The notes under the pieces were generated by a model. It did not search any database. It saw only the letters and a list, made by a program, of their open reading frames with translations, and was not told the origin of the DNA. A program made the position numbers and the translations under genes. From Pseudomonadota bacterium (GTDB taxonomy: Bacteria; Pseudomonadota; Alphaproteobacteria; SP197), in assembly GCA_039028155.1 (NCBI GenBank), contig JBCCIS010000001.1, positions 62,001-126,000 of the forward strand: a DNA stretch of 64,000 nt. Reading direction: 5' to 3'. Positions within the stretch are counted from its first letter, which is position 1. Every line of letters begins with the position of its first letter. Below are positions 4,044 to 35,093 of the stretch, in pieces.

Positions 4044-4799
4044 ATGAACATTCTTTCGATCAAGGATCTGCACGCCACCGTCGACGGCCAGGCGATCCTG
4101 AACGGTATCGATCTTGAGATCGACGCCGGTGAAGTGCACGCGATCATGGGTCCAAATGGGTCCGGCAAATCGACACTGTCCTATGTGCTTTCAGGGCGCA
4201 GCGGCTATGAGGTGACCAAGGGCGAGGTGCTCTATAAGGGTGAAGATCTCTTGGCCATGGAGCCGGAGGAACGCGCCCAGCAGGGCGTTTTCCTGGCCTT
4301 CCAGTATCCGGTCGAGATCCCCGGCGTGCCGACGACGTCATTCCTGAAGCAGTCGATCAACGCGATCAGGAAGGCGCGCGGCGAGGATCCGCTTGATGCC
4401 ATGGAATTCCTGAAGCTTGTGCGAGCCAAGCTGAAGGAGCTCGGCGTCGGCGAAGACATGATCAAGCGCGCGGTCAACACCGGTTTTTCCGGCGGCGAAA
4501 AGAAGCGCATGGAAGTGCTGCAGATGGCGCTGCTTGAACCGTCGCTCGCGATTCTGGATGAAACGGATTCCGGTCTCGACATCGACGCGCTGAAGATCGT
4601 CGCCGACGGCGTCAACGCCCTGCGTCGCGCCGACCGCGCCATGCTGGTGATCACCCACTATCAGCGCCTGCTCGATTACATCGTGCCCGACCACGTACAC
4701 GTGCTATCGGCCGGCAAGATCGTGCGCTCAGGCGACAAGTCGCTTGCGCTTGAGCTGGAAGAAAAGGGCTATGCCGACATCGTGTCGGCGGCAGCCTGA
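4044..4799 (+). CDS. sufC: SUF system ATPase SufC
   Basis: A 251-aa ABC-type ATPase without membrane partner. Walker A is GPNGSGKST (residues 36-44). The ABC signature is FSGGEKKRMEV (about 149-159). Walker B with its following region reads AILDETDSGLDID, the SufC-specific form. SufC powers conformational change in the SufBCD scaffold. It sits between sufB and sufD with 9 bp to the likely sufD start, so translation is probably coupled. Confidence 0.97.
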   Translation: MNILSIKDLHATVDGQAILNGIDLEIDAGEVHAIMGPNGSGKSTLSYVLSGRSGYEVTKGEVLYKGEDLLAMEPEERAQQGVFLAFQYPVEIPGVPTTSFLKQSINAIRKARGEDPLDAMEFLKLVRAKLKELGVGEDMIKRAVNTGFSGGEKKRMEVLQMALLEPSLAILDETDSGLDIDALKIVADGVNALRRADRAMLVITHYQRLLDYIVPDHVHVLSAGKIVRSGDKSLALELEEKGYADIVSAAA

Positions 4800-4808
4800 G
4801 GCTTGGCG

Positions 4809-6113
4809 ATGACGACAAGCGTTCCGTTCATCGAGAACTATAGCGACCTGCGCGCCGGGTTGCCCGGCGCCGGTCTGCCGTGGCTCGACACCTTGCGCGG
4901 CACCGGGCTGGACCGCTACGAAGCGCTCGGCCTGCCGACGCCCAAGGTCGAAGACTGGAAGTACACCAATCTTCGTGCGCTGACCGCGCTGACCTTCGCG
5001 CGTGCCAGCGGCGATCGGTCGGCCGCCATCGACGATGTGCCGTCGCTCGTCTTCGACGGCGACGTCCACCGCATTGTGCTGGTCAACGGCACCGTCAACG
5101 CGGCGCTGAGCGATTTCGACGGCCTGCCGGACGGCCTTTCCGTCCTGCCGTTTGATCAAGCGATCACCCGCGATCCCGGCGCTCTGGAAAGCCATGTCGG
5201 TCACGTCGCCGCGCTGGGCCGCAAACCCTTCGTCGCGCTCAACACCGCCTATCTCGATGACGGCCTGGTGATCCGCGTCGCCGCCGGCGCCAAGATCGAC
5301 GCACCACTACATCTGGCCTTTGTCGGCGCGGCGGGCGACGAGCATCTGGTCTGGCATCCCAGGCTCCTGATCGTCGTCGAGGAGGGCGCCAGCGCGACCA
5401 TTGTCGAGACCCATAGCGGCGCCGGTTCCTACTTCTCCAATGGCGTCAGCGAAGTCACGGTCGGCCGCGACGGCGGCCTGCATCACCTGAAGATCCAGGA
5501 CGAAGCGGCGGCGGCGTTCCACATTGCCGCGATCGAAGCCCGTGTCAGCGCGCGCGCGTCCTATGAGAGCTTCATTCTGTCGACTGGCGCGGCGCTGTCG
5601 CGCAATCAGATCAGTGTGCTGCTGGCCGAGGAAGAAGCACGGTGCCGGGTCAACGGCGCCTATCTGATGCGCGGCAATCAGCATGTCGACACGACAAGCG
5701 TCATCGATCATGCGGTGCCCAACTGCACGACCAACGAAGTCTACAAGGGCGTCTTGGACGATAAGGCGCGCGCAGTCTTCCAGGGCAAGATCATCGTCCG
5801 CAAGGACGCCCAGCACACCGAAGGCCACCAGCTCAACAAGACGCTGCTGCTGTCGGACCGCGCAGAGATCGACGCCAAGCCTGAGCTGGAGATCTATGCC
5901 GACGATGTCGCTTGCGGCCACGGCGCGACGACCGGAGAGATCGATGAGAACGCGCTCTTCTATCTGCGTTCGCGCGGCATCGATGCAGAGATAGCCCGTT
6001 CGATGCTGATCGACGCCTTCGTTGACGAGGCGCTACAGGAAATCAGCCGCGAGGACTTGCACGACACGTTCCGCGCCACCGTCGCGGCGTGGCAGAAAGG
6101 CGGGCTGTCATGA
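4809..6113 (+). CDS. sufD: Fe-S cluster assembly protein SufD
   Basis: A 434-aa SufD, homologous to SufB in its C-terminal beta-helix (the segment around RSRGIDAEIARSMLIDAF is characteristic). It completes the SufBC2D scaffold and is needed for iron acquisition by the complex. The frame also opens with a TTG at 4803, but ATG 4809 is the more likely start. Its stop overlaps the sufS start by 4 bp (ATGA, 6110-6113), a sign of translational coupling. Confidence 0.95.
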   Translation: MTTSVPFIENYSDLRAGLPGAGLPWLDTLRGTGLDRYEALGLPTPKVEDWKYTNLRALTALTFARASGDRSAAIDDVPSLVFDGDVHRIVLVNGTVNAALSDFDGLPDGLSVLPFDQAITRDPGALESHVGHVAALGRKPFVALNTAYLDDGLVIRVAAGAKIDAPLHLAFVGAAGDEHLVWHPRLLIVVEEGASATIVETHSGAGSYFSNGVSEVTVGRDGGLHHLKIQDEAAAAFHIAAIEARVSARASYESFILSTGAALSRNQISVLLAEEEARCRVNGAYLMRGNQHVDTTSVIDHAVPNCTTNEVYKGVLDDKARAVFQGKIIVRKDAQHTEGHQLNKTLLLSDRAEIDAKPELEIYADDVACGHGATTGEIDENALFYLRSRGIDAEIARSMLIDAFVDEALQEISREDLHDTFRATVAAWQKGGLS

Positions 6114-7366
6114 GCAAGGCCGCCGTCTCGAACCCACTCGCCAACGCACCGCTGGATATCGCGCGTATCCGCAAGGACTTTCCGATCCTCTCACGCGAGG
6201 TCTATGGCAAACCGCTGGTGTTCCTGGACAGCGCCGCAAGCGCGCAGAAGCCGCAGGTCGTCATCGATGCCGAACGGCATTGTTATGAAGAGGAGTACGC
6301 CAACGTTCATCGCGGCGTTTACTACCTAAGCCAGATGGCGACGGAGAAGTTCGAGGCAACGCGCACGCGCGTCCGCGAGTTTATAAACGCGGCAAGCGAC
6401 GACGAAATCGTCTTTACCCGCGGCGGCACCGAAGCGGTCAACCTGGTGGCGTCGAGTTACGCGCGCCACCACCTGGAGCCCGGCGACGAGATCCTGATTT
6501 CCGAACTGGAGCACCATTCCAACATCGTGCCGTGGCAATTGGCCGCCGAGGAAAAGGCTCTCACCATCGTGCCGATCCCGATCCTGGACGACGGTCAGAT
6601 CGATATGGCGGCCTATCGCGACGCGCTAGGGCCACGCAGCAAGATCGTCGCCATCACCCAGATGTCGAATGCGCTGGGCGTCGTGACGCCGATCCACGAG
6701 ATCATCCGCCTGGCGCATGACGCTGGCGCGAAGGTGCTGGTCGATGGCTGCCAGGCGATCACCCACAGTCATGTCGACGTGCAGGACCTTGACTGCGATT
6801 TCTACGTCTTTTCCGGCCACAAGATTTACGGGCCGACCGGCGCTGGCGCGCTGTACGCCAAGGCCGAGCTGCTCGACATGATGGCGCCCTATCAGGGCGG
6901 TGGCGAGATGATCGCGCGGGTGTCGCTGCAGAAATCGACGTTCAAGAACGGCGCCGCGAAGTTCGAGGCCGGCACGCCGGCCATCGCCCAGGTGATCGCG
7001 CTGAAGGCCGCACTCGATTATGTCGCCGATCTCGGCATGGACCGCATCGCCGATCACGAGCACATGCTGCTGGAGTACGCCACCGACCGCCTGTCGGCGG
7101 TCGACGGTCTGAGGATCTATGGCACGGCGCCGGCCAAGGCGAGCATCGTTTCGTTCACGCTCGACGGCGTTCACCCTCACGATATCGGCACCATCGTCGA
7201 CCGCGAAGGCGTCGCGGTCCGGGTCGGCCACCATTGCGCGCAGCCAGTCATGCAGCGCTTCGATATCGCGGCGACGGTGCGGGCCTCGTTCGGGCTCTAC
7301 AACACGACCGACGATATCGACCGTCTGGCCGAAGCTCTGGGCGCGGTTAAGGAGATGTTCGGCTGA
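6110..7366 (+). CDS. sufS: Cysteine desulfurase SufS
   Basis: A 418-aa class II cysteine desulfurase that takes sulfur from L-cysteine as a persulfide for cluster assembly. The PLP lysine is in SGHKIYGPTG (K238). The catalytic cysteine is in RVGHHCAQPV (C376), the short-loop SufS form. ATG 6110 overlaps the sufD stop. A longer version from 6089 would overlap sufD by 25 bp and has no support. The stop overlaps the sufU start (TGATG, 7364-7368). SufU next door is its expected sulfur acceptor. Confidence 0.96.
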   Translation: MSKAAVSNPLANAPLDIARIRKDFPILSREVYGKPLVFLDSAASAQKPQVVIDAERHCYEEEYANVHRGVYYLSQMATEKFEATRTRVREFINAASDDEIVFTRGGTEAVNLVASSYARHHLEPGDEILISELEHHSNIVPWQLAAEEKALTIVPIPILDDGQIDMAAYRDALGPRSKIVAITQMSNALGVVTPIHEIIRLAHDAGAKVLVDGCQAITHSHVDVQDLDCDFYVFSGHKIYGPTGAGALYAKAELLDMMAPYQGGGEMIARVSLQKSTFKNGAAKFEAGTPAIAQVIALKAALDYVADLGMDRIADHEHMLLEYATDRLSAVDGLRIYGTAPAKASIVSFTLDGVHPHDIGTIVDREGVAVRVGHHCAQPVMQRFDIAATVRASFGLYNTTDDIDRLAEALGAVKEMFG

Positions 7367-7827
7367 TGGATGAGCTGCGCGAACTCTACCAGGAGGTCAT
7401 CCTGGACCATGGCCGCAACCCCCGGAACTTCGGCCATCCGCCGTCGTGCAACCGGCAGGCGGACGGCGACAACCCGCTATGCGGCGACCAACTGACGGTC
7501 TACCTGAACGTCAGTGATGACGGCATCGTCGAGCATGTCGCCTTCGAGGGACGCGGATGCGCGATTTCCATGGCATCGGCATCGATGATGACCGAGCTGG
7601 TCAAAGGCAAGACGGCGGCCGAGGCCGAGGCTCTGTTCGAGAAGTTTCATCATCTTGTGACCGACGACACGGTCGATCTGGACATGGCGGCGGAAGATGA
7701 GGACCTGGAGAAGCTGGTCGTGCTCTCCGGCGTTCGGCAATTCCCCATGCGGGTCAAGTGTGCCACCTTGCCCTGGCATACCATGACCGCCGCGATTGAC
7801 GGCAAGGGAACGGTGACGACGGAGTGA
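7366..7827 (+). CDS. sufU: SufU-type sulfur transfer protein
   Basis: A 153-aa IscU-fold protein of the SufU type. Ligand residues are C39 and D41 (NPLCGDQ), C65 (GRGCAIS) and C132 (RVKCATLPW), with the extra insertion between the second and third cysteine that separates SufU from IscU. SufU takes persulfide from SufS by a zinc-dependent exchange and hands it to SufB. Start and stop overlap or abut sufS and the SufT-like gene, so it belongs to the same polycistron. Confidence 0.94.
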   Translation: MDELRELYQEVILDHGRNPRNFGHPPSCNRQADGDNPLCGDQLTVYLNVSDDGIVEHVAFEGRGCAISMASASMMTELVKGKTAAEAEALFEKFHHLVTDDTVDLDMAAEDEDLEKLVVLSGVRQFPMRVKCATLPWHTMTAAIDGKGTVTTE

Positions 7828-7829
7828 TC

Positions 7830-8303
7830 ATGGACGAAACCCGCACCCAGCCAGGCGCACCGACGCCCACACCCGATCCAGCGCCCGCGCCCCGCCCCGC
7901 CGAAGACGCGGCGCCGGCGCCCGCGATGGGCGAGAAGGCCCATGAAAGCTGGACGCCCGACGACGCAGCCGATCCGACCAAGATCGAGCAGCAGGAGGGC
8001 GAACCGCTGATCAGCGACATCGTCGATGCGATACGCACGGTCTTCGATCCTGAGATTCCGGTGAACATCTACGATCTCGGCCTGATTTATGCCATCGATT
8101 CGCGTCAGGATGGTTCTGTGAAGGTCGAGATGACCCTGACCGCGCCGGGTTGTCCTGTCGCCGAGGAGATACCGATTTGGGTACGCGACGCCGTCGCGAC
8201 CGTGGAAGGCACGACCGATATCGATGTCGAGATTGTCTGGGACCCGCCGTGGGACCCCTCGATGTTGTCGGAATATGCTAAGATAGAACTCGGGCTGTTT
8301 TAG
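7830..8303 (+). CDS. SufT/MIP18-family Fe-S maturation protein
   Basis: A 157-aa protein with a proline- and alanine-rich N-terminus (residues 1-60, low complexity, PTPTPDPAPAPRPAEDA). A MIP18/DUF59 domain follows (about 65-157) with the family motifs DPEIPVNIYDLGLIY and TLTAPGCPVAEEIP, the latter holding the conserved cysteine. Members assist delivery of Fe-S clusters to target proteins (SufT, and CIAO2 in eukaryotes). It starts 2 bp after sufU; the GTG at 7824 is an alternative. The disordered N-tail is lineage-specific. Confidence 0.88.
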   Translation: MDETRTQPGAPTPTPDPAPAPRPAEDAAPAPAMGEKAHESWTPDDAADPTKIEQQEGEPLISDIVDAIRTVFDPEIPVNIYDLGLIYAIDSRQDGSVKVEMTLTAPGCPVAEEIPIWVRDAVATVEGTTDIDVEIVWDPPWDPSMLSEYAKIELGLF

Positions 8304-8329
8304 GCCCTTTAGGGAGCGGAACGAGGACC

Positions 8330-8674
8330 ATGTTTGGAAGTCCCGACAGCAAACTCTTTACCTTGACCGACAAGGCCGCTGAGCGCGCCAAGGTCTTGCT
8401 CGCCCAGAACGATCAAGCGATCGGTCTGAAAGTCGGCATCAAAACAGCTGGCTGTAGCGGTTTCTCCTACACCATGGACTATGCCGAGGAAGTGACCGGC
8501 AAGGAGGACGTGGTTGAGGAAAAGGGCATCAAGATCCTGATCGATCCGACCGCGACCATGTTTCTGATCGGTACCGAACTGGACTGGCACGAGGACAAGC
8601 TTGAATCCCGCTTCGTCTTCAACAATCCCAACGCCAAAGGCATGTGCGGCTGCGGCGAATCCTTCACGGTTTGA
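8330..8674 (+). CDS. A-type Fe-S carrier (SufA/IscA family)
   Basis: A 114-aa HesB/IscA-fold protein. The three ligand cysteines are C42 (KTAGCSGF) and C106/C108 (GMCGCGESF), the CX63CXC spacing of A-type carriers. It would take clusters from SufBCD and pass them to apo-proteins. It is the last gene of the suf operon, 26 bp after the SufT-like gene. I leave the symbol empty because sufA, iscA and erpA cannot be told apart safely here. Confidence 0.9.
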   Translation: MFGSPDSKLFTLTDKAAERAKVLLAQNDQAIGLKVGIKTAGCSGFSYTMDYAEEVTGKEDVVEEKGIKILIDPTATMFLIGTELDWHEDKLESRFVFNNPNAKGMCGCGESFTV

Positions 8675-8718
8675 TCCGACGACATAACCCCATGGGCGCG
8701 CCTCAGAGGTTCACGCGT

Positions 8719-10677
8719 ATGAACATCAGGCGGATTGTCACAGTACTGGCGGTGTTCCTTAGCGTAGCGATCACCGCGGAGGCGCGCGCGCTTTCCGAAT
8801 CCGATCAGGCGCTCTACGCCCAGGCATTCGAGGAAGTCGAGGCGGGCAATTGGCAGGACGCCTATGGCTTGGCCGCGCGCGCCAACGACCAGCGCCTGGC
8901 CGAGGTCATCTATTGGCTCGACCTGCAGGACCGTGAGACCGAGGAATCGTTCAGCGAAATTCTCGGTTTCATGCTGGATCATCCCGACTGGCCGCGGCTG
9001 ACGACCTTGCGCGGTATCGCGGAAGAAGCGATGCCGCATGACCTGCCGGCGAGCGATGTCATTGCCTACTTCACGGCATACCCGCCGGTCGAGACCGCCG
9101 GCATCGTACGCTACGGCTTGGCGCTGATCCGCAGCGGTCAGGATGCCGAGGCGACAGCCCTGGTTCAAACGGCCTGGATCGAGGACGACTTTTCGGCAGC
9201 GGAAGAAGCCGACTTCCTGAAGTACTTCAGGTCACGCCTGACGCTGGACGATCACCTTGCGCGGCTGGATCGCCTGTTGTGGGAAGGCAAGACGATCTCC
9301 GCCAAGCGCATGCTGAACCGCGTCGGACAGGACGAGGCCGCGCTGGCTTTCGCGCGCATCACGCTGCGGTCGGGCGAGCCGGGCGTCGATGGGGCGATCA
9401 ACCGCGTGCCTTCTGAATTGCACGATGATCCCGGCTTGATCTTCGAACGGCTGCGTTGGCGCCGAATCAAGGGGTTTGATGATTCGGCGGCCGAGCTGCT
9501 GATGCCCTCGCCCGACGAACTCGTCTACCCCGACCTTTGGGCGCGCGAGCGTTTGATCCTTGCGCGGCGTTACCTCGATAACGGCGATGCGGCGACCGCC
9601 TATCGCCTGCTGGCCGACCACGCCAACATCAACGGCGCGTTCCATCACGAGGTCGATTGGCTGGCCGGGTGGGTGGCGCTTCGCAAGCTCGACCAGCCGG
9701 CGGTCGCGCTTGATCATTTCATGACCTTCTATGACGGCGTCGGCTATCCGATCAGCCGCTCGCGCGGCGCCTATTGGGCTGGCCGTGCGTCAGAGGCCAT
9801 GGGCGACATGGAACAGGCCCGCGTCTGGTACGACCTGGCCGCCGACCATGGCAATACGTTCTATGGCCAGCTCGCCGCCGAGAAGCTTGATGTCGCGCCG
9901 CGCTTCGCCGAAGTGCCGCAACCCACCGAGTCCGAGACGAACGCCTTTGCCGCCGATGAACTGGTGTCGCTGGTGCGCCTGCTGGACGAGGTCGGCGCGC
10001 GCGATCAGGTTCGCCGCTTTCTGCTGCACATTGGCGATCGCGCGGATTCGCCGGCCACGCTGCATTTGAGCGCGCAACTGGCCCTGGTACTGGGCCGCCC
10101 CGATCTTGCCGTCAGCATTGCCAAGGCCGGCGTCCGGCGCGGCACCATTCTGGTCTATGCCGGCTATCCGATGATCGACCTGCCAACCGAGTCGGCCGTC
10201 GATCCAGCACTGACGCTTGCGGTCATCCGACAGGAAAGCTCATTCAATCCCGGTGCTATCAGCTCCGCCGGCGCGCGCGGCCTGATGCAACTGATGCCGG
10301 CGACCGCACAGGGCGTTGCCGACGACCTCGGCATCTATCACACGCGCGGCAAGCTCACGAGTGATCCCCTCCACAACATGCGTCTGGGCACCGCCTACAT
10401 GGCCGAACTACTGGATGCCCAGGGCGGCTCCTATGTCCGCGCCATCGCCGCCTATAACGCCGGTCCGTCGCGCGTCTACCGCTGGATCAACGAGTACGGC
10501 GATCCCACGTCGCCCGACATCGATATCATCGACTGGATCGAACAGATCCCGTTCAGCGAGACCCGCAACTACGTACAACGCGTGCTGGAAGCCCTTGTCG
10601 TCTATCGCGTCCTGCACGGTGTCCAAACCGCCAGCCTGAACGACTCACTGACCGGCCACTGCGCCGCAATGTGTTAG
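8719..10677 (+). CDS. Periplasmic soluble lytic murein transglycosylase (Slt70-like)
   Basis: A 652-aa exported protein. The start at 8719 puts a clean signal peptide at the N-terminus (MNIRRIVTVLAVFLSVAITAEARA). An alpha-helical superhelical region of repeated helix pairs covers about residues 40-470, as in Slt70. The C-terminal SLT domain (about 485-640) has the catalytic glutamate E506 in IRQESSFNP. It also has GARGLMQLMPATA and IAAYNAGPSRV. The enzyme cleaves peptidoglycan glycan strands to 1,6-anhydro-muropeptides. It lies 44 bp after the suf operon but is functionally unrelated and may have its own promoter. Confidence 0.92.
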   Translation: MNIRRIVTVLAVFLSVAITAEARALSESDQALYAQAFEEVEAGNWQDAYGLAARANDQRLAEVIYWLDLQDRETEESFSEILGFMLDHPDWPRLTTLRGIAEEAMPHDLPASDVIAYFTAYPPVETAGIVRYGLALIRSGQDAEATALVQTAWIEDDFSAAEEADFLKYFRSRLTLDDHLARLDRLLWEGKTISAKRMLNRVGQDEAALAFARITLRSGEPGVDGAINRVPSELHDDPGLIFERLRWRRIKGFDDSAAELLMPSPDELVYPDLWARERLILARRYLDNGDAATAYRLLADHANINGAFHHEVDWLAGWVALRKLDQPAVALDHFMTFYDGVGYPISRSRGAYWAGRASEAMGDMEQARVWYDLAADHGNTFYGQLAAEKLDVAPRFAEVPQPTESETNAFAADELVSLVRLLDEVGARDQVRRFLLHIGDRADSPATLHLSAQLALVLGRPDLAVSIAKAGVRRGTILVYAGYPMIDLPTESAVDPALTLAVIRQESSFNPGAISSAGARGLMQLMPATAQGVADDLGIYHTRGKLTSDPLHNMRLGTAYMAELLDAQGGSYVRAIAAYNAGPSRVYRWINEYGDPTSPDIDIIDWIEQIPFSETRNYVQRVLEALVVYRVLHGVQTASLNDSLTGHCAAMC

Positions 10678-10686
10678 GAGGGAGCG

Positions 10687-11154
10687 CTACGCTCGCTCGA
10701 TACGGCCGGCATAGCAGCCCTGCTTGGCATTGTGGGCGTGGATGTAGGATGTCCTGGGGTTCTCGAACAATCGCTCGATGGTCGGCTTGACCTCATCACC
10801 AAAGGCCAGATCAGCCTCGACCAGCATGCCCATGGCATCAAACGCGCGCAGTGACTGCGGATAGTCACGCATGACGTCGGGCACGTCGTTCTCGCCGACA
10901 TAGGACTGCTCGGCACCCTCCAGCACATAGATTGCGTGGGTTGCCCGATAGGGCGTGTCCGCCGGCTGGCTGACATGGTTGAGCAGCAGAACCGATTCGC
11001 CGGGTCTGGCGTTGCGCATTTCGATGCGGTCGGTGTAGGCGTTCACCTCATCGGCGACATAGCGTTTGACGCCACGCCGCGCGAGCTCATCGTCGGAAAG
11101 GCCGTAGAGATGCCGGAACGGCTCGGCTGACAGGCCGATGATACGAAAACCCAT
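10687..11154 (-). CDS. DUF1203 domain protein
   Basis: A 155-aa protein that matches the DUF1203 family along its full length, recognised from FRIIGLSAEPFRHLYGLSD at the start and the conserved RPGESVLLLNHV and TPYRATHAIYV segments. No enzymatic function is known for the family. No signal peptide or membrane segment is visible. It converges on the lytic transglycosylase gene with a 9-bp gap and is probably monocistronic. Confidence 0.8.
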   Translation of the reverse strand: MGFRIIGLSAEPFRHLYGLSDDELARRGVKRYVADEVNAYTDRIEMRNARPGESVLLLNHVSQPADTPYRATHAIYVLEGAEQSYVGENDVPDVMRDYPQSLRAFDAMGMLVEADLAFGDEVKPTIERLFENPRTSYIHAHNAKQGCYAGRIERA

Positions 11155-11243
11155 GATCGTTACTCCGCAAGCAAGGGAGTCAACGATCTAGGGTCCCGGG
11201 CCCCATGAGGCCACCCGGTTCTTGCTGCGACGGAAGGCGATGT

Positions 11244-12815
11244 CTATCCGCCGCCGACCACCTTCGCCCATGGCGACATGATGAACGCGGCACCGTCGTG
11301 GGTGCCGTTGTGGTTGTCGCAGACGGCGTTCGGACAGGCATAGAGAGTCGGATTGACCGCATAGGGCAAATCGACCGTGGCGTGCCGGTCGGCAAGCGCC
11401 AGACGAACAGACTCATCAAGCCGGGTGTCGACAGCGATGGCGGCCTCGGCGCTAACGTCGATGCGCGGTTGATGGAACGCGCGGTCGAGATCCCAGCCGA
11501 AATCGCTGACGAAGGAGATCAACTGGAAAACCGACGCCATGATCCGCCGGCCGCCCGAGGCCCCCAACCCCATCAAGCCGGAACCGTCGGCACGCGTCAC
11601 GATGGTCGGTGTCATGTTGCTCAAGGGACGCTTACCCGGAGCCATGCTGTTCGGGCGGCCCGGCCGCGGGTCGAACCACATGATGCCGTTGTTCATCAGG
11701 ATACCGGTACCCGGCAGCATGACGCGGCTGCCGAAGACCGACAGCAGGGTCTGGGTCAGGGCGACGATACTGCCGTCGCGGTCGATGACGGTGAAATGCG
11801 TGGTGCAGCTTTCGCCTGCCTTGTCGCTGTCGCCGAGCGTCGCAAAGCGTTGCTCGTAGGCGCCCTCCATGGCGGCCGCGTAGGCCAGATAGGCATCGGC
11901 ATCCGGTGCTTCACCGGGCGTCCATAAGGCCTCCAGCCGCTGGAAGCTATCCTGCAAGGTCGGGCCGGCGTTAAGGCCGGGCGGCACGTTGATGGTGACA
12001 TCACGATAGCTGCTCTGCACCGCCGCACCGGCGTTTGCCTGATACCCGGCGAGATCCTCAGCCGCCAGGCTCCCGCCCATGGCCGCCATGTCACTGGCAA
12101 TCGACGCGGCAATATCGCCCCGGTAGAAATCGTCAGGCCCGGCCTCGGCCAGGCGTTTAAGGGTCGCGAGATAAGCGTCGTTGCGCCGTGTCGTCAGATC
12201 CGCCGCGTTCAGGCTGATCGCGGGCAACCCATCGGGCAGGAAGAAGTCGCGTGAGGCCGGGTACTTGGCGAGACCGGGCGCCTCGAGCGCAATCCTCAAG
12301 GTCGCGTACCAGTCGATCTTCATGCCACGCTCTGCCAGCGCGATCGCCGGACTCAAGACATCCGACCAGCTCATGGTGCCGAACTTATCGAGCGCCAGAG
12401 CGTGGCCGGCGACGACGCTGGGCACGCCGATCGATAGCGGCCCCTGCACGTTGCAATCGTCGACGACACGCGGCCAGCCGAACAGGTCGGCATCGGTGTC
12501 CTGGCCGACCTCGAGCGGATAGGCGGCGGGGTCGAGCCCAAGCGGCGAGCGTGTGCCGAAGTCAACCGCGTAGGTCCGTTTGGTCTTGGCGTCGTGAAAC
12601 ACCATATAGCCGCACCCACCCAGACCGCTCATCCACGGTTCGGCGACACCGATCGCCATGCCGGTGGCGATGGCCGCATCGACCGCGTTACCCCCGGCAT
12701 CAAGCACCGCCGCGCCGATTTCCGAGGCCTCATGGTGATGGCTCGCCACCAGACCACCGGCTGAGCGGACGGCAGGTTTGGTGACGGTCCAGGTTTCGTC
12801 GATCGATACAGACAT
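11244..12815 (-). CDS. Gamma-glutamyltransferase family protein
   Basis: A 523-aa Ntn-hydrolase of the gamma-glutamyltranspeptidase family. The autoprocessing site and nucleophile is T338 in ESCTTHFTVID. Downstream are NNGIMWFDPRPG and PLSNMTPTIV of the small subunit. No signal peptide is visible, unlike periplasmic Ggt, so it is probably cytosolic and closer to the acylase-like branch. It is divergent from a PuuB-like FAD oxidase across 96 bp. Glutamylated amines could be a shared substrate theme, but this is inference. Family members cleave gamma-glutamyl amides or cephalosporin-type acyl amides. Confidence 0.88.
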   Translation of the reverse strand: MSVSIDETWTVTKPAVRSAGGLVASHHHEASEIGAAVLDAGGNAVDAAIATGMAIGVAEPWMSGLGGCGYMVFHDAKTKRTYAVDFGTRSPLGLDPAAYPLEVGQDTDADLFGWPRVVDDCNVQGPLSIGVPSVVAGHALALDKFGTMSWSDVLSPAIALAERGMKIDWYATLRIALEAPGLAKYPASRDFFLPDGLPAISLNAADLTTRRNDAYLATLKRLAEAGPDDFYRGDIAASIASDMAAMGGSLAAEDLAGYQANAGAAVQSSYRDVTINVPPGLNAGPTLQDSFQRLEALWTPGEAPDADAYLAYAAAMEGAYEQRFATLGDSDKAGESCTTHFTVIDRDGSIVALTQTLLSVFGSRVMLPGTGILMNNGIMWFDPRPGRPNSMAPGKRPLSNMTPTIVTRADGSGLMGLGASGGRRIMASVFQLISFVSDFGWDLDRAFHQPRIDVSAEAAIAVDTRLDESVRLALADRHATVDLPYAVNPTLYACPNAVCDNHNGTHDGAAFIMSPWAKVVGGG

Positions 12816-14276: not shown

Positions 14277-14858
14277 TCAACCAGCGGCCGCCAGATCGGC
14301 AACGTGGTCCCGGGCGATCTGGTGGATGACCTCCAGGTTGAAGCCGTCGGGATCCTGGGTGTGGCGTAACCACATGCCGTAGATCAGCGCGACGATGGCC
14401 TGGGCCCGGACATCCACCTTGTCGGCGGCAACGACTTTCTCCAGCCGTGGCCGCAACAGGCCGAGTAGGTTATCGTCCATCTCACGCAGGATGCGCGCGT
14501 AATCGGGGTTGCCGGGTACCTGGGCATAAAAGCTGAGCCAGGCGCTGATCGCCTCCGGCGAGCGCTGGGACGGCGCGAAATTGCCGTCGATGATGGCGAT
14601 CAGTTCCTCTTCCGGTGTTGTTGCGCCAGTCAGCATGGCCGCCGCGCCGGCCATGGTTTCGGCGGCCAGCGACTGCATGGTCGCTTCGAGCAACTCACCC
14701 TTGCCGTCGAAATAGTGATTAACCAGGCCGACCGACAAACCGGCGCGGCGGCTGATCTTGGCCACGGTCGCGTCGCGGAAGCCGTCCTGGTGGATCGACT
14801 CGATGGTCGCTTCGATCAACTGCCGGCGGCGCACCGGCTCCATACCTACCTTGGGCAT
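14277..14858 (-). CDS. betI: TetR-family choline-responsive repressor BetI
   Basis: A 193-aa TetR regulator. It begins MPKVGMEPVRRRQLIEATI, the BetI-specific N-terminus. The HTH follows at about residues 25-48 (TVAKISRRAGLSVGLVNHYF). The length matches E. coli BetI (195 aa). BetI represses choline-to-betaine genes until choline binds. Here it is the third gene after proV and the permease (24-bp gap), so it is probably co-transcribed with, and regulates, the transporter. No betA or betB occurs in the window. Confidence 0.88.
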   Translation of the reverse strand: MPKVGMEPVRRRQLIEATIESIHQDGFRDATVAKISRRAGLSVGLVNHYFDGKGELLEATMQSLAAETMAGAAAMLTGATTPEEELIAIIDGNFAPSQRSPEAISAWLSFYAQVPGNPDYARILREMDDNLLGLLRPRLEKVVAADKVDVRAQAIVALIYGMWLRHTQDPDGFNLEVIHQIARDHVADLAAAG

Positions 14859-14882: not shown

Positions 14883-17006
14883 CTAATGGTCAATCAGGCC
14901 GAGATCGCGTTTCTTCTGCTTGGCCCAGGCTTGAATGACGCGGTCGGCGACCATGGCCATCAGCGCCATGCTGCCACCGGCGATAAATCCCTGGCCGAAC
15001 TTGGCGTTGGTCAGGCTGTCATAGACCCACTGGCCCAGGCCGCGTGTGCCGACCAGGGCGGCGATCACCAGCATGGCGAGTGCGAACATGATGACCTGGT
15101 TCAGGCCCAGCATGATTTCGGGGATCGCAAGCGGCAGTTTGACGCGCCACAGGATCTGGCTCTCTGTACAGCCCATACTGCGCGCCGCCTCAACGGCGGA
15201 GGGGTCGACATGACGCAGGCCGTACTCCGTATAGCGGATCGCCGGCACGATCGAATACATAATGATCGCCAACAGTGCGGAGAAGTCGCCGACCAGGAAG
15301 ACCATGATCACGGGGATCAGGAAAACGAACAGCGGCATGGTCTGCAGCGTGTCGTTGATCGGCCGCACGATGGCCGAGACGCGGTCGTTCTGCGCCGCCC
15401 AGATACCGATGGCGCCGCCCAGCAGGAAGCAGATGATGACCGACGTCGCGGCCAGATAGAACGACAGCATGGCGCGCGGCCAGGCGCCGGTAACCAGCAT
15501 GAAGAGCAGCGCCAGGCACGCGAACAAACCGACACGCCAGCCGCCGACCTGGAACGCGATCAACGTCACCGCACCGATGAAGACGGGCCACGGCGTTCCG
15601 GTCGAACCGAAGAAGAAGAGCATGGTCAAAAGACCAACCACGACACCGGCGCGCCAGCCGAACTTGCGTACCGCCGCGGCCCCGGCCAGTAGCGCGATGA
15701 ACCAATAGATGGCGGCCGCCGTCGCCGTCATCTCGAAACCCCAGTTATCGGGACGGGCGATCCGTTCCAGGCCCGCCTTCATGGGCAGCATGAAGTAGTA
15801 AAGCGTCGACGTCTTGATGCTGTCGGTCAGCCAGAAGAAGTTCCGCGTGAAGGCGTTAACCCAACCGTTCAGGATGTCGGCGGGATAGACGACCCACGCG
15901 GTCGGATAGTTGCCGAACTCCGGGATCAGGCGGGCCAGAACGACACCGGTCAACGTGGCGAGGACAAACGCCACAAGATAAGGGTGGCGCTGCAAGAGGC
16001 CGCCCTTGCGCGCGACATGGATCTCGCCCGTGCGCTCGGCAAAGCCACGGCTGATGCGGTCCATCATCATGGCCATCAAGACGATCACGATGCCGGCCAA
16101 CAGGCTCTGGCCGGTCTGCGCCTTCCGCATGGTCGAGAGCACTTCCCAGCCGATATCGGCAAAGCCGCCGATAATGGCGGCGATGATCACCATGGAGAGC
16201 GCGGCCATGATGGTCTGGTTGACGCCGACCATGATGGTCGGCAGCGCCGACGGCACGCGCACCATGAACATCAACTGGAACTCGCTGCAGCCCGACATGC
16301 GACCGGACTCGATGACGTCGGCGGGCACACGCGACAGACCCAGCATGCAGTTCCTGACCATGGGCGGGCTGGCATAGATGGCGCTCGCCACCATGCCGAC
16401 CACCGGGCCGACGCCGAACAGGATCAGGATCGGCACCAGATAGGCGAAGGTCGGCACCGTCTGCATGACGTCGAGCAGCGGTTCGATGATGCGGCGCGCC
16501 CAGCGGAACTTGTAGGCCAAGAGGCCCATGGTGAAGCCCAGCGTCAGCGACAGCGGCACCGACATGCCGACCAGCGCCAGGGTGCTCATGCTCTCGTCCC
16601 AATAGCCGACCACCAGCATGTAGGCGAGTGCCGCGACGCAGAACGCGGAAAGCCGCCAACCCTTGGCCGCGTAAGCCATGATGGCGACGATCGCGATGGT
16701 CGCCGGCCACGGCAGCCAATGCAGCAGGCCCTCAAGCCATTCCATGGGATAGGACAGCACCATGGAGATGAACCGGAAGATCACCTTGAAGGTATCGGTG
16801 AACCAATCCATGGCCACATCAAGCCAACCGGAAAGCGGGACGACCCAGGCATTGGGATAACGGACCGCCCAGGCGACCTCATCACGGAACACGAGAAACA
16901 GAATGGCGATAACGCCAAAGGCCAACCATGCCAAAAGCTGGGGATCAGCGAGCTTGCTGGTGCCGGCAAACGGGCTTTCAGGGCGGTCCCGTGTCGCGAT
17001 ACTCAT
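14883..17006 (-). CDS. Betaine/proline ABC transporter permease with two permease domains
   Basis: A 707-aa integral membrane protein, about twice the length of ProW. Two BPD_transp domains are visible. The first (about residues 140-320) contains the EAA-like region around SGRMSGCSEFQLMFMVRVP. The second (about 500-690) contains AARSMGCTESQILWRVKLP. Each is preceded by extra membrane segments. The duplicated form supplies both halves of the channel from one chain. It overlaps proV by ATGA (17003-17006) and precedes betI. Likely cargo: glycine betaine, choline or DMSP. No periplasmic binding protein gene is adjacent, so one must be encoded elsewhere. Confidence 0.88.
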   Translation of the reverse strand: MSIATRDRPESPFAGTSKLADPQLLAWLAFGVIAILFLVFRDEVAWAVRYPNAWVVPLSGWLDVAMDWFTDTFKVIFRFISMVLSYPMEWLEGLLHWLPWPATIAIVAIMAYAAKGWRLSAFCVAALAYMLVVGYWDESMSTLALVGMSVPLSLTLGFTMGLLAYKFRWARRIIEPLLDVMQTVPTFAYLVPILILFGVGPVVGMVASAIYASPPMVRNCMLGLSRVPADVIESGRMSGCSEFQLMFMVRVPSALPTIMVGVNQTIMAALSMVIIAAIIGGFADIGWEVLSTMRKAQTGQSLLAGIVIVLMAMMMDRISRGFAERTGEIHVARKGGLLQRHPYLVAFVLATLTGVVLARLIPEFGNYPTAWVVYPADILNGWVNAFTRNFFWLTDSIKTSTLYYFMLPMKAGLERIARPDNWGFEMTATAAAIYWFIALLAGAAAVRKFGWRAGVVVGLLTMLFFFGSTGTPWPVFIGAVTLIAFQVGGWRVGLFACLALLFMLVTGAWPRAMLSFYLAATSVIICFLLGGAIGIWAAQNDRVSAIVRPINDTLQTMPLFVFLIPVIMVFLVGDFSALLAIIMYSIVPAIRYTEYGLRHVDPSAVEAARSMGCTESQILWRVKLPLAIPEIMLGLNQVIMFALAMLVIAALVGTRGLGQWVYDSLTNAKFGQGFIAGGSMALMAMVADRVIQAWAKQKKRDLGLIDH

Positions 17007-18067
17007 GTCAGGGCCTCATCGTCATCTTCGCTGGCCAGCGCCGACAGCACGGCTTGCGGTGAAACCTGGCCGACCACGCTGCCCGCATCGGCAACCGCGA
17101 TTGCGTCCAGACCCTCGGAAAACTTCGGCATCAGGTGCTCCAGCGTCATGTCGGGCGGGACCGCCTGGCTCATGTCCAGGCCATTGGTCGCCTGGGTCAT
17201 GATGTCGCCAGCCGTGATCACCTTCACCCGCGGCACGTCCTGGGTGAACTCCTCGACATAATCGTCGGCGGGCGTCATCACGACTTCCGCCGGCGTGCCG
17301 ATCTGGACGACCTTGCCGTCTTTCATGATGGCGATACGGTCGCCCAGGCGAAGTGCCTCCAGGAAATCGTGGGTGATAAAGACGATCGTCTTATGCAGCA
17401 GCTTTTGCAGGCGCATGAACTCGTCCTGCATCTGGCGTCGGATCAGCGGGTCGAGTGCGGAGAACGGCTCGTCCAGGAACCACAGTTCCGGTTCGACCGC
17501 CAGGGAGCGCGCGATGCCGACACGCTGCTGCTGACCACCGGAGAGTTGGCGCGGATAACTGCCCTCGCGTCCGTCAAGGCCGACCAGTTCGATCATCTCC
17601 ATGGCGCGCGCCAAACGTTCCTGCTTGTCGATGCCCTGAACCTGCAGCGGAAAGGCCACGTTCTCCAGAACGTTCAGGTGCGGCAGCAGACCGAAGTTCT
17701 GGAACACCATGCCCATCTTGTGGCGACGGATATCAATCAGCTGTTCCTTGGAGACACGCAGCAGGTCCTCGCCATCGAGCAGGACCTCGCCCGCCGTCGG
17801 CTCGACCAGGCGCGACAGGCAGCGGACCATCGTCGATTTGCCCGAGCCCGACAGTCCCATGATGATGAAAATCTCACCAACGTGGACGTCGAACGATACG
17901 TCGCAGGCAGCGCCGATGTGACCGCTTTCCCGAATCTGCTCGAGCAGGGCACCAGGTTCGGCGACCTTGCCGTTGCCGTTATCGAAGAAACCGTCGGCTT
18001 CCGGTCCATAGACCTTCCACACATTGCGGCACACCAGTTTGACGTCGCGCTCGCTGCTTTCGACCAT
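17003..18067 (-). CDS. Glycine betaine/proline ABC transporter ATPase ProV
   Basis: A 354-aa ATPase of the ProV/OpuAA type. Walker A is MGLSGSGKSTMVRCL. The signature is LSGGQQQRVGIARSL. Walker B is ELWFLDEPFSALDP. The long insert before Walker A (residues about 20-55) is typical of this family. Two weak CBS-like segments lie at the C-terminus (about 265-350), where ProV/OpuAA senses ionic strength. Start 18067 is chosen because AGAGGG lies 6 bp upstream; an upstream in-frame ATG at 18148 has no such site. First gene of the transporter-betI operon. Confidence 0.9.
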   Translation of the reverse strand: MVESSERDVKLVCRNVWKVYGPEADGFFDNGNGKVAEPGALLEQIRESGHIGAACDVSFDVHVGEIFIIMGLSGSGKSTMVRCLSRLVEPTAGEVLLDGEDLLRVSKEQLIDIRRHKMGMVFQNFGLLPHLNVLENVAFPLQVQGIDKQERLARAMEMIELVGLDGREGSYPRQLSGGQQQRVGIARSLAVEPELWFLDEPFSALDPLIRRQMQDEFMRLQKLLHKTIVFITHDFLEALRLGDRIAIMKDGKVVQIGTPAEVVMTPADDYVEEFTQDVPRVKVITAGDIMTQATNGLDMSQAVPPDMTLEHLMPKFSEGLDAIAVADAGSVVGQVSPQAVLSALASEDDDEALT

Positions 18068-18429
18068 TGCCCTCTTTCGCCCACCCGCCGGACTGTTGCC
18101 GTCCGTGACGCGTGAATTACCCTTAACGTCTTGTCTGTTGGCCGGCATTGCCGGCGAATCATCCGACAGTTAGCCACGACCGGCGCTCAAGGTCCACACA
18201 CGCAACCGCCAGCATGGACGCCCCTTGCCCACCCGGGGGTCGCGGACGGTTGTATCCGCCGGGCTTCTATCACTTTCCACTTGCACCCCTCTAACCGCGC
18301 ATCCCTTACGAAGTGCCCCTATCTTCACCCGGGCTGCCCGTTGTTCACCGATAGTAAACGCCGCATCCATTTGCCATACTTTGTCGTCCTGTGCGGGTCC
18401 GAGCGTGTTCCCATGATCTTGGGCACAGG
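18068..18429. promoter_or_regulatory. Divergent intergenic region between the proV operon and the APC permease gene
   Basis: This 362-bp stretch holds no convincing gene. It must contain the promoters of both divergent units. A short perfect hairpin (GCCGGC-ATT-GCCGGC, 18141-18155) lies in the proV leader. An AT-richer segment is at about 18340-18385. A BetI operator is expected here but I could not identify one by eye. Confidence 0.4.
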
Positions 18430-31720: not shown

Positions 31721-32857
31721 ATGCTGACCCAAACCCAGGTCCGGCAACTATATCGCGAAACCGGCGAGGCGCAGGGCCTGCCGGGCTTTGTCTACACCTC
31801 CGAAGACTTCGCGCGCGCGGAGCATGAAAAGCTGTTCGCGCGCACCTGGATGTGTGCGGGCTATGCTCATGAAATAGCACAACCGGGCGATGTATTACCG
31901 CGCACCGTCGCCGGTGTGCCGATCCTGTTTACCCACGATCGGGACGGTCAAATCGGCTGTTTTCACAATATCTGCACGCACCGCGGCAGTTTGCTGGTTC
32001 CAGAGGCGAAATCCGGCGCCCAGACGCTGCAATGCCGCTATCACGCATGGACCTTTGATCTGGCTGGCAACCTGCGCGCGACGCCCCATTGGGGCGGCCA
32101 TAACCAGCCAAAGGCGAACGGCTTCGACCGCAGTTGCCACGGCCTCAAGCCCGTGCGCATGGCGCGCTGGCATGACTGGCTCTTCGTCAACCTGGACGGC
32201 AACGCGCCGCCGTTCGAGGACTATGCGGCGCCGTTCCAGAAACACTTCGACGAGTACGATCTGGACCAGGCGGTCTGGACGACGTGTCTGCCGTTCGACA
32301 TCAACGGCAATTGGAAGCTGGTCGCCGAAAATTATCTGGAAGTGCTGCATCTGCCCTATGTCCACACGGTCCTGGCCGAGGCCGCGCCGTTCCAGGAGCA
32401 CGATATCATCACCGACGGTGCGTGCCTGGGGACCGTGATCGACACCGGCCTGCCGGCAAGCTGGTCCGAAGACAACCTGCCGCGCTGGCCTGGCATCGCG
32501 GCCAACGCGCAGAACGCGAAGAACATGGCACTGTTCCCCAACTTCAAGCTGGTGATCGGTCCGGACCACTGTTGCAGCATGGTCGAGTTCCCCGCGGGCG
32601 CTTCGAAGTCGCACCAGCGCTGGGACTTCTACTTCGTCGGCGAAGGCGGCCGTGACGCGCGCTATGAGGCGGCCCGCGACGCGATCATCGAGTTCTATCG
32701 CAAGACCAATGTCGAGGATTTCGAGGCGGTCGAAGGCGTGCATGCCGGCCACATGTCGCCCGCCATGACCGGCGCGCAGTTCTCAGGCGTGTGGGAAGGC
32801 GCGGTGCATCACTTTCAGAAACTGGTCGCCGATGCCATGGTCGACGACAACACTTAG
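31721..32857 (+). CDS. Rieske non-heme iron oxygenase, alpha subunit (carnitine/betaine monooxygenase type)
   Basis: A 378-aa ring-hydroxylating-type oxygenase. The Rieske [2Fe-2S] ligands are C85/H87 (ICTHRG) and C105/H108 (CRYHAW). The mononuclear iron histidines are H210 and H215 in ENYLEVLHLPYVH. Overall form is that of CntA/YeaW and GbcA, which oxidise quaternary amines, rather than of aromatic dioxygenases, and no beta subunit is nearby. A reductase partner (CntB/GbcB type) is also absent. A BKACE gene follows after 66 bp, which points to carnitine or another betaine as substrate. The ATG is preceded by AAGGACG. Confidence 0.85.
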   Translation: MLTQTQVRQLYRETGEAQGLPGFVYTSEDFARAEHEKLFARTWMCAGYAHEIAQPGDVLPRTVAGVPILFTHDRDGQIGCFHNICTHRGSLLVPEAKSGAQTLQCRYHAWTFDLAGNLRATPHWGGHNQPKANGFDRSCHGLKPVRMARWHDWLFVNLDGNAPPFEDYAAPFQKHFDEYDLDQAVWTTCLPFDINGNWKLVAENYLEVLHLPYVHTVLAEAAPFQEHDIITDGACLGTVIDTGLPASWSEDNLPRWPGIAANAQNAKNMALFPNFKLVIGPDHCCSMVEFPAGASKSHQRWDFYFVGEGGRDARYEAARDAIIEFYRKTNVEDFEAVEGVHAGHMSPAMTGAQFSGVWEGAVHHFQKLVADAMVDDNT

Positions 32858-32923
32858 GTATCGTCGACAAGCCGTCGTCGCGGTGCTAAGGCCGAAGAAA
32901 CACAAACCAGAGGAGCCAACGCC

Positions 32924-33805
32924 ATGAATACCGACGTCTTCATTACATGCGCCCTGACGGGAGCCGGCGACACGGTGGGTAAGAGCGACAAGGTTCCCGT
33001 CACACCCGAACAGATTGCCAATGATGCCATCGAGGCGGCCAAGGCCGGCGCGGCGATCGCCCACATTCATGTGCGCGATATCGAGACCGGCCAAGGCAAC
33101 CGCGACCCCGAACTGTTTCGCGAGACGGTCGCGCGTATTCGTGACAGCGATACCGATGTCATCATCAACCTGACGACGGGCATGGGTGGCGACTTCGTGC
33201 CCGACCCCGACGACCCGACCAAGCTGGCGGAAGGTTCCGACATGGCGTCGGCCGAAGAGCGCGTCATCCATATCGAGGAGCTGCTGCCGGAGATCTGCAC
33301 CCTGGACGTCGCAACCATGAACTTCACCCACGGCGCCTTCATGAATGTGCCCCAGGTGCTGCGCGTCATGGCCGACCGCATCAAGGCCGCGGGCGTCGTA
33401 CCTGAGCTGGAGTGTTTCGACCTCGGTCATGTGCGATTGGCCAACCAATTGATCAAGGAAGGCCACATCGACGAACCACCGCTGTTCCAGCTGTGCATGG
33501 GCGTGCCGTGGGGCGCGCCCTCCGATCCGGAATCGGTCATCGCCATGCGCAACCTGCTGCCGGAGAACGCCACGTGGTCGGGTTTCGGCATCAGCCGCAT
33601 GCAGATGCCGATGGCAGCACAGATGGTCATCCTGGGCGGCAACGTGCGGGTCGGCCTGGAGGACAACCTCTACCTGTCGCGCGGCGTCCTGGCCAGCAAC
33701 GGTCAGCTGGTCGAGCGTGCGGTCGATATCGTCGAAAACCTCGGCGCGCGCGTCATGTCGCCGGCCGAAACCCGCGAGAAACTAGGCCTGACGCAGCAGC
33801 ATTAG
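32924..33805 (+). CDS. Beta-keto acid cleavage enzyme (BKACE, DUF849)
   Basis: A 293-aa TIM-barrel zinc enzyme of the BKACE family. The zinc histidines are H47 and H49 in AIAHIHVRD, and the family start FITCALTGAG is present. BKACE enzymes split a beta-keto acid with acetyl-CoA into acetoacetate and a new CoA ester. One well-known subgroup cleaves 3-dehydrocarnitine to betainyl-CoA plus acetoacetate. Co-orientation with a CntA/GbcA-like oxygenase supports that kind of substrate. A good ribosome-binding site (AGAGGAG) lies upstream. The precise substrate class needs active-site comparison. Confidence 0.87.
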   Translation: MNTDVFITCALTGAGDTVGKSDKVPVTPEQIANDAIEAAKAGAAIAHIHVRDIETGQGNRDPELFRETVARIRDSDTDVIINLTTGMGGDFVPDPDDPTKLAEGSDMASAEERVIHIEELLPEICTLDVATMNFTHGAFMNVPQVLRVMADRIKAAGVVPELECFDLGHVRLANQLIKEGHIDEPPLFQLCMGVPWGAPSDPESVIAMRNLLPENATWSGFGISRMQMPMAAQMVILGGNVRVGLEDNLYLSRGVLASNGQLVERAVDIVENLGARVMSPAETREKLGLTQQH

Positions 33806-33818
33806 ACTTCGAGAAACG

Positions 33819-35093
33819 TTAGTCCAGCAACGCGGCTTCATAGGGAAACTGCGACAGCTGTTCGTAGCCGTCCTGCGTGATCAGGACCTGCTGTTCCAGC
33901 TTCACGCCGTCGCGTTCGCCGACGGCACCGATATAGCTTTCGACGCAGATCACCATGCCGGGCTCGATCGTGCCGTCGTAGACGAAGCTGTCGCGGAAGA
34001 CCGGTTTGACCTGCGGATATTCGTCGCACATGCCGACACCGTGGATGACGCAGGCATAGGCGTTCTGCTGGAACTCCTCGGGCACCGGCCAGGCTTGTTC
34101 GCGGATCTCGCCCAGGGTGATGCCGGGACGCATTAGTTTGAGGTTGGTCTCGACCTCCTCCATGGCCAGCCGGTAGAGCTCCTTCTGGCGCTTCGTCGGC
34201 TTGGACGGACCACAGTGAAAGGTCCGGGAGATATCCGCGAAGTAGCCATACGGCCCGACCATGTCGGTATCGAAACCGACGAGGTCACCGTCCTCGACCT
34301 TTCGCTGCGAAGCCTCCTGCAGCCACGGATTGATGCGCGACCCCGACGCCAGCATGCGGCCTTCGTGCCAATCGCCGTTGTTGGCGAGGTTGGTGTAGTT
34401 GAGCAGTGCCCATAGCTGCACTTCGGTGACGCCCGGACGCAGCGCTTCTTTCATCTTGGTAGCGCCCAGCTCAGCGACCGCGACCGCCCACTTGATGCAC
34501 GCAACCTCGTCGGGCGATTTGATGACGCGTGCTTCCTCGGCGATCTGAACGCCATCGCCCACATCCAATCCGCGCTGCATCAGGGCCTGAGTAACGCTCG
34601 GATTGGTGTACTCGATCATGACGCGACGATTGTCGGTACCGATCTCGCTTAAGTAGTCGACGACATCGCCTGCCAACAACCGTGCTTCCTCGGGCAGTTC
34701 CTGCGCACCGTCGAAGAAGGAGTGCGCCCGTCCGGCGCGCGCCTCGTCAACACCGGGCGGGTTACCGTAACTGTTGTAGATGAAGACCGGACCCTCTTGC
34801 GGAACGAAGAGATAGGTCGAGGGAATGTGGGACTGGAAGAGCTCGTACGTCCGGTAGTCGACCGCGTAGCGCAGGCTGATCGGGTTAACCAGGATGCACA
34901 TCGCGGCGTCATGGCGCTTCAGCGCGTCGCGGATGCGGCCCAGGCGATACTTGTGCAACCGGTCGAAGTCGACCACAGGTGGCTCGCGGTACCGGGTGAG
35001 ATCGCTCCAATCGTCGTTCGAGACAATCGCGTCGATGGTGTGCTCAGACATGAAGACGTTCCGCAGCCGTCCGTTAACGTCGCGCACCATCAC
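33819..35093 (-). CDS. M24-fold metalloenzyme, candidate DMSP lyase DddP
   Basis: A 424-aa pita-bread (M24) protein with an N-terminal creatinase-like domain. Visible catalytic set: D275, D277 and D287 (FDTDMVGPYGYFAD), H351 and D357 (HGVGMCDEYP), Y346, E385 (VESYIG) and E400 (KLEQQVL). From memory, DddP of Ruegeria uses D295, D297, D307, Y366, H371, D377, E406 and E421. The spacing here agrees at every step except one residue between H and the first E. Ordinary Xaa-Pro peptidases share five of these residues but not the extra Asp, Tyr and Asp. It converges on the BKACE gene (13-bp gap). An Xaa-Pro peptidase or creatinase role remains possible. ATG 35051 is an alternative start. Confidence 0.62.
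   Translation of the reverse strand: MMVRDVNGRLRNVFMSEHTIDAIVSNDDWSDLTRYREPPVVDFDRLHKYRLGRIRDALKRHDAAMCILVNPISLRYAVDYRTYELFQSHIPSTYLFVPQEGPVFIYNSYGNPPGVDEARAGRAHSFFDGAQELPEEARLLAGDVVDYLSEIGTDNRRVMIEYTNPSVTQALMQRGLDVGDGVQIAEEARVIKSPDEVACIKWAVAVAELGATKMKEALRPGVTEVQLWALLNYTNLANNGDWHEGRMLASGSRINPWLQEASQRKVEDGDLVGFDTDMVGPYGYFADISRTFHCGPSKPTKRQKELYRLAMEEVETNLKLMRPGITLGEIREQAWPVPEEFQQNAYACVIHGVGMCDEYPQVKPVFRDSFVYDGTIEPGMVICVESYIGAVGERDGVKLEQQVLITQDGYEQLSQFPYEAALLD

What the first reader, a model, noticed from the sequence alone, without database searches (positions are those of the whole stretch)
33819..35093. M24-fold protein with the full catalytic residue pattern of DMSP lyase DddP
Besides the five metal ligands common to M24 enzymes (D277, D287, H351, E385, E400), it has D275, Y346 and D357. 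Their spacing matches the extra metal Asp, the Tyr and the catalytic Asp I recall for DddP of Ruegeria (D295, Y366, D377). Five of six intervals agree exactly and one differs by a single residue. It sits tail-to-tail with genes for quaternary-amine oxidation and beta-keto acid cleavage, so sulfonium/ammonium osmolyte use is a coherent theme. If right, the organism could release dimethyl sulfide.
Basis: partly seen in the sequence, partly recalled or inferred. Interest (0 to 1): 0.7.

Follow-up and report, generated by a model that had tools for sequence, protein, structure and literature searches.

The report
DddP-like metalloenzyme, probably betaine pathway
The gene is a real cousin of the marine DMS-releasing enzyme DddP and keeps its catalytic residues, but it belongs to a separate, uncharacterised branch that sits among genes for breaking down betaine-type compounds, so release of dimethyl sulfide cannot be inferred from it.

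Summary
The ORF (minus strand, 424 aa) has all six DddP metal ligands, the Tyr and the catalytic Asp at DddP spacing. DddP (RlDddP, RdDddP) is its closest solved relative by sequence (E 6e-72; next M24 enzyme 9e-18) and by fold.

The inference "therefore DMSP lyase" does not hold. The pattern is shared by a whole family: in 158 aligned members D295, D307, H371, E406 and E421 equivalents are invariant, D297 is in 155, Y366 in 157 and D377 in 153. The window protein fails four DddP tests: NCBIfam score (287 against cut-off 600 bits), identity to ratified DddP (33% against a published 40% rule), clade placement (AU p = 0.0002) and the N-terminal appendix.

Family members across proteobacteria lie near quaternary-amine catabolism genes: GbcA/Stc2-like Rieske oxygenases (4-bp gene overlaps in four orthologs), MttB methyltransferases and betaine transporters. 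On the same replicons, 7 of 7 M24 regions carry such genes against 0 of 7 control regions.

Best reading: a binuclear-metal C-N (or C-S) bond-cleaving enzyme for a betaine-like zwitterion, substrate unknown. DMSP cleavage as main or side activity is not excluded. The window's own Rieske-BKACE pair is a separate module in relatives.

The parts
33819..35093 (-). DddP-superfamily M24 protein, 424 aa as ORF; probable true start ATG at 35051
   Evidence: start by comparison with orthologs
33894..34271 (-). Active-site span: D275, D277, D287, Y346, H351, D357, E385, E400 (RlDddP D295, D297, D307, Y366, H371, D377, E406, E421)
   Evidence: residue map and conservation over 158 family members; ligand roles from PMC4108388
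32924..33805 (+). Beta-keto acid cleavage enzyme (BKACE), convergent neighbour; substrate unknown
   Evidence: PF05853 335 bits; closest NCBIfam model KCE below its cut-off; conserved with the Rieske gene in relatives
31721..32857 (+). GbcA/CntA-like Rieske oxygenase alpha subunit, with a Glu at the CntA bridging position
   Evidence: below the GbcA cut-off (120 against 670 bits)
14277..14858 (-). BetI-like repressor, about 20 kb away; context only
   Evidence: PRK00767 173 bits over cut-off 118
14883..18148 (-). Betaine/proline/choline-type ABC transporter: double-domain permease (14883-17006) and ProV-type ATPase (17003-18148); context only

Best explanation
The protein is a member of a large, mostly uncharacterised DddP-like family of M24-fold enzymes, in a clade separate from true DddP. 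Shown: family membership, conserved metal and catalytic residues, loss of both M24 peptidase histidines, and association of the family and of this clade with quaternary-amine catabolism genes. Inferred: as a homodimer it holds two metals (probably iron); these bind the carboxylate of a small zwitterion carrying a quaternary ammonium (or sulfonium) group; D357, helped by Y346, acts as base and the C-N (or C-S) bond is cleaved, working beside Rieske or MttB enzymes that strip methyl groups. The substrate is unknown and is probably a betaine other than DMSP.
For: DddP is the nearest solved relative by sequence and fold. Catalytic residues are invariant in the clade and nearly so in the family. 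Position 258 is Leu where half of the other M24 proteins have His, and position 357 is Asp; loss of these histidines is linked to loss of peptidase activity in DddP (PMC5395565). A GbcA/Stc2-like Rieske gene lies directly upstream on the same strand in 8 of 71 orthologous loci, with 4-bp overlaps in L092, L115 and L122, and directly downstream with a 4-bp overlap in L138. In 16 family genomes, Rieske genes lie within 4 kb of 8 of 80 family M24 genes (1.2 expected) and MttB genes of 11 of 80 (1.5 expected). On the same replicons 7 of 7 M24 regions carry Rieske, MttB or betaine-transport genes against 0 of 7 control regions (Fisher p = 0.0006). A GbdR-like regulator is present in the Mesorhizobium cluster.
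Against: No substrate has been demonstrated for any family member outside DddP. Only 36 of 78 orthologous loci showed a recognised quaternary-amine gene within the fetched flank (many contigs are short). In the window the M24 gene is convergent, not in an operon with the Rieske gene, and that Rieske is only about 30-35% identical to the operonic one. The enrichment counts include related loci and are not independent. A hydrolase reaction of creatinase type is not excluded.
Confidence: 0.5

Rival explanations
1. It is a functional DMSP lyase, a divergent DddP that releases DMS and acrylate from DMSP as its main job.
For: All residues shown to be essential in DddP are present. A Fusarium DddP only 32% identical to RdDddP was reported to give DMS from DMSP in E. 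coli (PMC4108388), so low identity alone does not exclude activity.
Against: Below the DddP cut-off, outside the DddP clade, different positions at W95, A103, H252, I263, T265 and F278, no N-terminal appendix. No acrylyl-CoA reductase AcuI over cut-off in the own genome or 8 relatives; this is weak, since AcuI occurs in 46% of sampled Alphaproteobacteria.
Confidence: 0.15
2. A hydrolase of creatinase or ectoine-hydrolase type that splits a C-N bond of a zwitterionic methylated compound with water.
For: M24-fold creatinase and ectoine hydrolase act on small zwitterions and are found among structural matches. Same gene-context evidence as the best explanation.
Against: Creatinase and DoeA are far by sequence (32 bits to 1chm; 39 and 20 bits to the ectoine hydrolase models). 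The DddP-type Asp in place of the M24 His is conserved, which fits proton abstraction better.
Confidence: 0.22
3. An ordinary Xaa-Pro peptidase, as relatives are annotated on plasmids.
For: M24 Pfam domain; PGAP annotation of relatives.
Against: Prolidases are about 180 bits worse. The column with His in half of the other M24 proteins is Leu258, and Asp357 is DddP-type. It joins DddP, not the other M24 proteins of the genome, in the tree.
Confidence: 0.05

Closest known systems
DddP DMSP lyase (NCBIfam NF043017; RlDddP 4rzy, RdDddP 4b28)
   Same: Fold, six metal ligands, Y366 and D377 equivalents, NPW motif, replacement of M24 catalytic histidines
   Different: About 33% identity, separate clade, Phe86 for Trp95, Tyr94 for Ala103, Asn232 for His252, His243 for Ile263, Leu258 for Phe278, no N-terminal appendix, different gene context
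DddP-like 'Xaa-Pro peptidase family' proteins of rhizobial, Burkholderiales and Pseudomonas plasmids
   Same: Same superfamily and active-site pattern, quaternary-amine gene neighbourhoods
   Different: Other clades, 36-48% identity except Mesorhizobium orthologs (63%), which belong to the same clade
Creatinase and ectoine hydrolase DoeA (M24B)
   Same: Pita-bread fold, small zwitterionic substrates
   Different: Distant sequence by the searches made here; different reaction (hydrolysis)
Xaa-Pro dipeptidase and aminopeptidase P
   Same: Fold and five shared metal ligands
   Different: Catalytic His residues not conserved, about 20-24% identity to the genome's own and related M24 proteins

Membership tests
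DddP DMSP lyase | Six metal ligands D295, D297, D307, H371, E406, E421 | tested here: met
   ligand list from PMC4108388
DddP DMSP lyase | Catalytic-site Y366 and D377 | tested here: met
   Y346 and D357; but also in 157 and 153 of 158 family members, so not discriminating
DddP DMSP lyase | M24 histidines replaced by Asp and Phe | tested here: inconclusive
   Asp present (D357); the column of RlDddP F278, His in 4 of 8 other M24 proteins, is Leu258. That F278 is the Phe meant in PMC5395565 is inferred from the alignment
DddP DMSP lyase | NF043017 score above the curated cut-off of 600 bits | tested here: not met
   287.5 bits
DddP DMSP lyase | At least 40% identity to a ratified DddP (criterion in PMC6309047) | tested here: not met
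   33.2% to RlDddP and RdDddP; criterion; other ratified DddPs, including the fungal ones, were not in hand
DddP DMSP lyase | Placement in the clade of characterised DddP | tested here: not met
   (AU p = 0.0002 against one clade of DddP plus window clade)
DddP DMSP lyase | N-terminal loop-helix appendix (RdDddP residues 10-50) | tested here: not met
   appendix described
DddP DMSP lyase | DMS and acrylate from DMSP | not testable with these tools
   needs an enzyme assay
M24 Xaa-Pro peptidase | Catalytic histidines near the metal site | tested here: not met
   L258 and D357 at the aligned positions
Ectoine hydrolase DoeA | NCBIfam score above cut-off (575 or 613 bits) | tested here: not met
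   39 and 20 bits
Creatinase | Close sequence kinship to solved creatinases | tested here: not met
   32 bits to 1chm against 246 bits to DddP
DddP-like M24 superfamily (defined here) | Score far above other M24 proteins plus D297 and D377 equivalents | tested here: met
   family members at or above 170 bits, other M24 proteins at or below 71 bits; residues

The most novel reading that the evidence does not exclude
The DddP-like M24 family as a whole is a family of betaine (quaternary ammonium) C-N lyases working with Rieske and MttB demethylases, of which the marine DMSP lyase DddP, with its millimolar Km, is one derived or promiscuous branch. The window clade is one such enzyme with a new substrate.
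Probability: 0.25. Interest if true: 0.7.

Novelty: new variant of a known kind. Interest (0 to 1): 0.42.

Why it matters
DddP is counted as the most abundant bacterial DMSP lyase gene in the ocean (about 65% of ddd genes, PMC10686828). Residue-pattern or modest-identity calls would sweep in a wide family with other likely roles: two paralogs in this genome reach 40-41% identity to RlDddP yet lie outside the DddP clade. If the family acts on betaines, it fills a missing step in methylated-amine catabolism and offers an origin for DddP's weak affinity for DMSP.

Tried and rejected
Viral contigs: no relatives. AcuI as a sign of acrylate handling: absent in 9 genomes with a window-clade M24 and present in 9 of 12 DddP genomes, but found in 53 of 115 sampled Alphaproteobacteria, so only weak evidence. 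Window Rieske and BKACE as partners of the M24: rejected as a conserved module, because in relatives they travel together on other contigs and the operonic Rieske of other orthologs is a different paralog. The tryptophan said to bind DMSP sulfur could not be identified by number (one search found no open text), so W95-to-F86 is noted without claiming it is that residue. Literature on an M24 enzyme in betaine clusters: nothing found.

Full report
What is there. The interval 33819-35093 encodes a 424-aa protein on the minus strand. Orthologs mostly begin at or after residue 15, so the real start is probably the ATG at 35051. Pfam finds the M24 domain. The best NCBIfam model is DddP (NF043017) at 287.5 bits, well below its 600-bit cut-off but far above every peptidase model (76 bits or less). 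In the PDB, RlDddP and RdDddP score 241-246 bits; the next M24 enzyme scores 68. The AlphaFold model (mean pLDDT 88) also finds DddP first (E 8.5e-43, TM 0.85), ahead of prolidases at 1.5e-23. The overall rmsd to DddP is large (about 10 A), so fine pocket geometry should not be read from this model.

The residue pattern. The pattern is not specific to DMSP lyases. In 158 family sequences the ligands are at or near invariance, Tyr366 is present in 157 and Asp377 in 153, while 8 other M24 proteins lack the pattern. The pattern therefore marks the DddP-like superfamily.

How large the family is. Among 385 alphaproteobacterial genomes drawn evenly, 78 had a member at E 1e-60 or better but only 12 had one over the DddP cut-off. 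The window's genome holds four members; against the DddP model they score 418, 402, 384 and, for the window gene, 287 bits, so the window copy is the least DddP-like. The family is common on plasmids of Rhizobium, Sinorhizobium, Mesorhizobium and Burkholderiales. Orthologs of the window gene at 58-94% identity occur in Alpha- and Gammaproteobacteria and one Acidimicrobiaceae genome assembly.

Where it sits. An IQ-TREE quick tree of 98 rows puts the characterised DddPs in a 26-row clade (support 99) and the window protein in a different 21-row clade (support 100), with several other clades between. Forcing the two into one clade is rejected (AU p = 0.0002). A caveat: the groups were named after seeing the tree, and the fungal DddPs with proven activity were not available here. 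One of them is only 32% identical to RdDddP, so distance alone does not exclude DMSP lyase activity.

What differs from DddP. Compared over 84 window-clade and 26 DddP-clade sequences, near-fixed differences include F86/W95, Y94/A103, N232/H252, H243/I263, G245/T265, A261/C281 and F285/C305, plus L258/F278. The N-terminal appendix of DddP is missing; a short W29-S-D-L motif stands there instead. Whether all these line the pocket is inferred, not shown.

Gene context. On annotated plasmids the family lies beside glycine betaine or choline transporters, MttB-family methyltransferases, GbcA/Stc2-like Rieske oxygenases, sarcosine oxidase, betaine-homocysteine methyltransferase, GbdR-like regulators and mandelate-racemase-family enzymes. 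Even a canonical DddP in Loktanella lies next to a GbcA-like oxygenase and GbcB-like reductase. Seven control regions chosen on the same replicons showed none of the Rieske, MttB or betaine-transport genes, against 7 of 7 M24 regions (p = 0.0006); the count was made by eye on product names. In 16 genomes of the window's family, Rieske and MttB genes are about sevenfold over expectation within 4 kb of family M24 genes; related loci make these counts non-independent. In the window clade itself, a Rieske gene directly precedes M24 on the same strand in 8 of 71 loci, with 4-bp overlaps in three of them, and in a further locus (L138) follows it with a 4-bp overlap. That Rieske is closest to solved demethylase-type and carnitine monooxygenase structures (that 4qup is the stachydrine demethylase Stc2 is from my own knowledge) and carries the bridging Glu seen in CntA. 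A gammaproteobacterial subgroup has a different conserved cluster with a GntG-like PLP aldolase and two unknown proteins.

The window's own neighbours. The Rieske and BKACE genes are real, but in related genomes they form a pair of their own, apart from the M24 ortholog. The tail-to-tail position in the window is shared with its genus-mate only. The window further carries a BetI-like repressor and a ProV/ProW-type transporter 16-20 kb away, and the genome holds 15 MttB-family genes, so the organism is rich in quaternary-amine functions in general.

Mechanism. By analogy with DddP (PMC4108388; PMC5395565), two metals would hold the substrate carboxylate while Asp357 removes the alpha proton and the beta C-N or C-S bond breaks. 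The residues are shown; the reaction and substrate are inferred. Elimination is preferred over hydrolysis because the Asp that replaces the peptidase His is kept, but this is not proven.

Verdict. A true and well-spotted resemblance, an over-specific conclusion. The protein works perhaps like DddP but is not filed as DddP, since score, identity, clade and N-terminal tests were not met. The wider interest lies in the DddP-like family being tied to betaine catabolism.

Noticed in passing
L166 (G000:C19) 8957-11721: A near-complete DddP-like gene is followed by a short fragment of a second copy. In relatives (G007, G008, G011, G012 and others) two full family genes stand in tandem next to an MttB gene, which suggests a heterodimer and decay of one copy here.
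   Followed up: partly
L102, L104, L110, L112, L114, L116, L125, L134: Gammaproteobacterial orthologs share a cluster: MFS transporter, GntG-like PLP aldolase, M24, unknown 176-aa and 470-aa proteins without Pfam match, plus TauD, DAO-type oxidase, malonyl-CoA synthase and amidase in some. It recalls the hydroxylase-plus-aldolase logic of trimethyllysine to carnitine conversion.
   Followed up: partly
L182 8623-13007: Canonical dddP of Loktanella salsilacus lies beside a GbcA-like Rieske oxygenase (392 bits), a GbcB-like reductase and an old-yellow-enzyme-type flavoprotein, a betaine-demethylation layout.
   Followed up: partly
window 14883-17006: A 707-aa ABC permease with two permease domain stretches, next to a ProV-type ATPase and a BetI-like repressor; looks like a two-domain betaine/choline permease.
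   Followed up: no
L180 (G009:C31) 4600-11250: Four Rieske oxygenase alpha subunits in a row with a DddP-like M24 gene among them.
   Followed up: no
window 31721-33805: Rieske-BKACE pair conserved as a unit in at least eight related genomes; substrate unknown, possibly a carnitine-like beta-keto quaternary amine route.
   Followed up: partly
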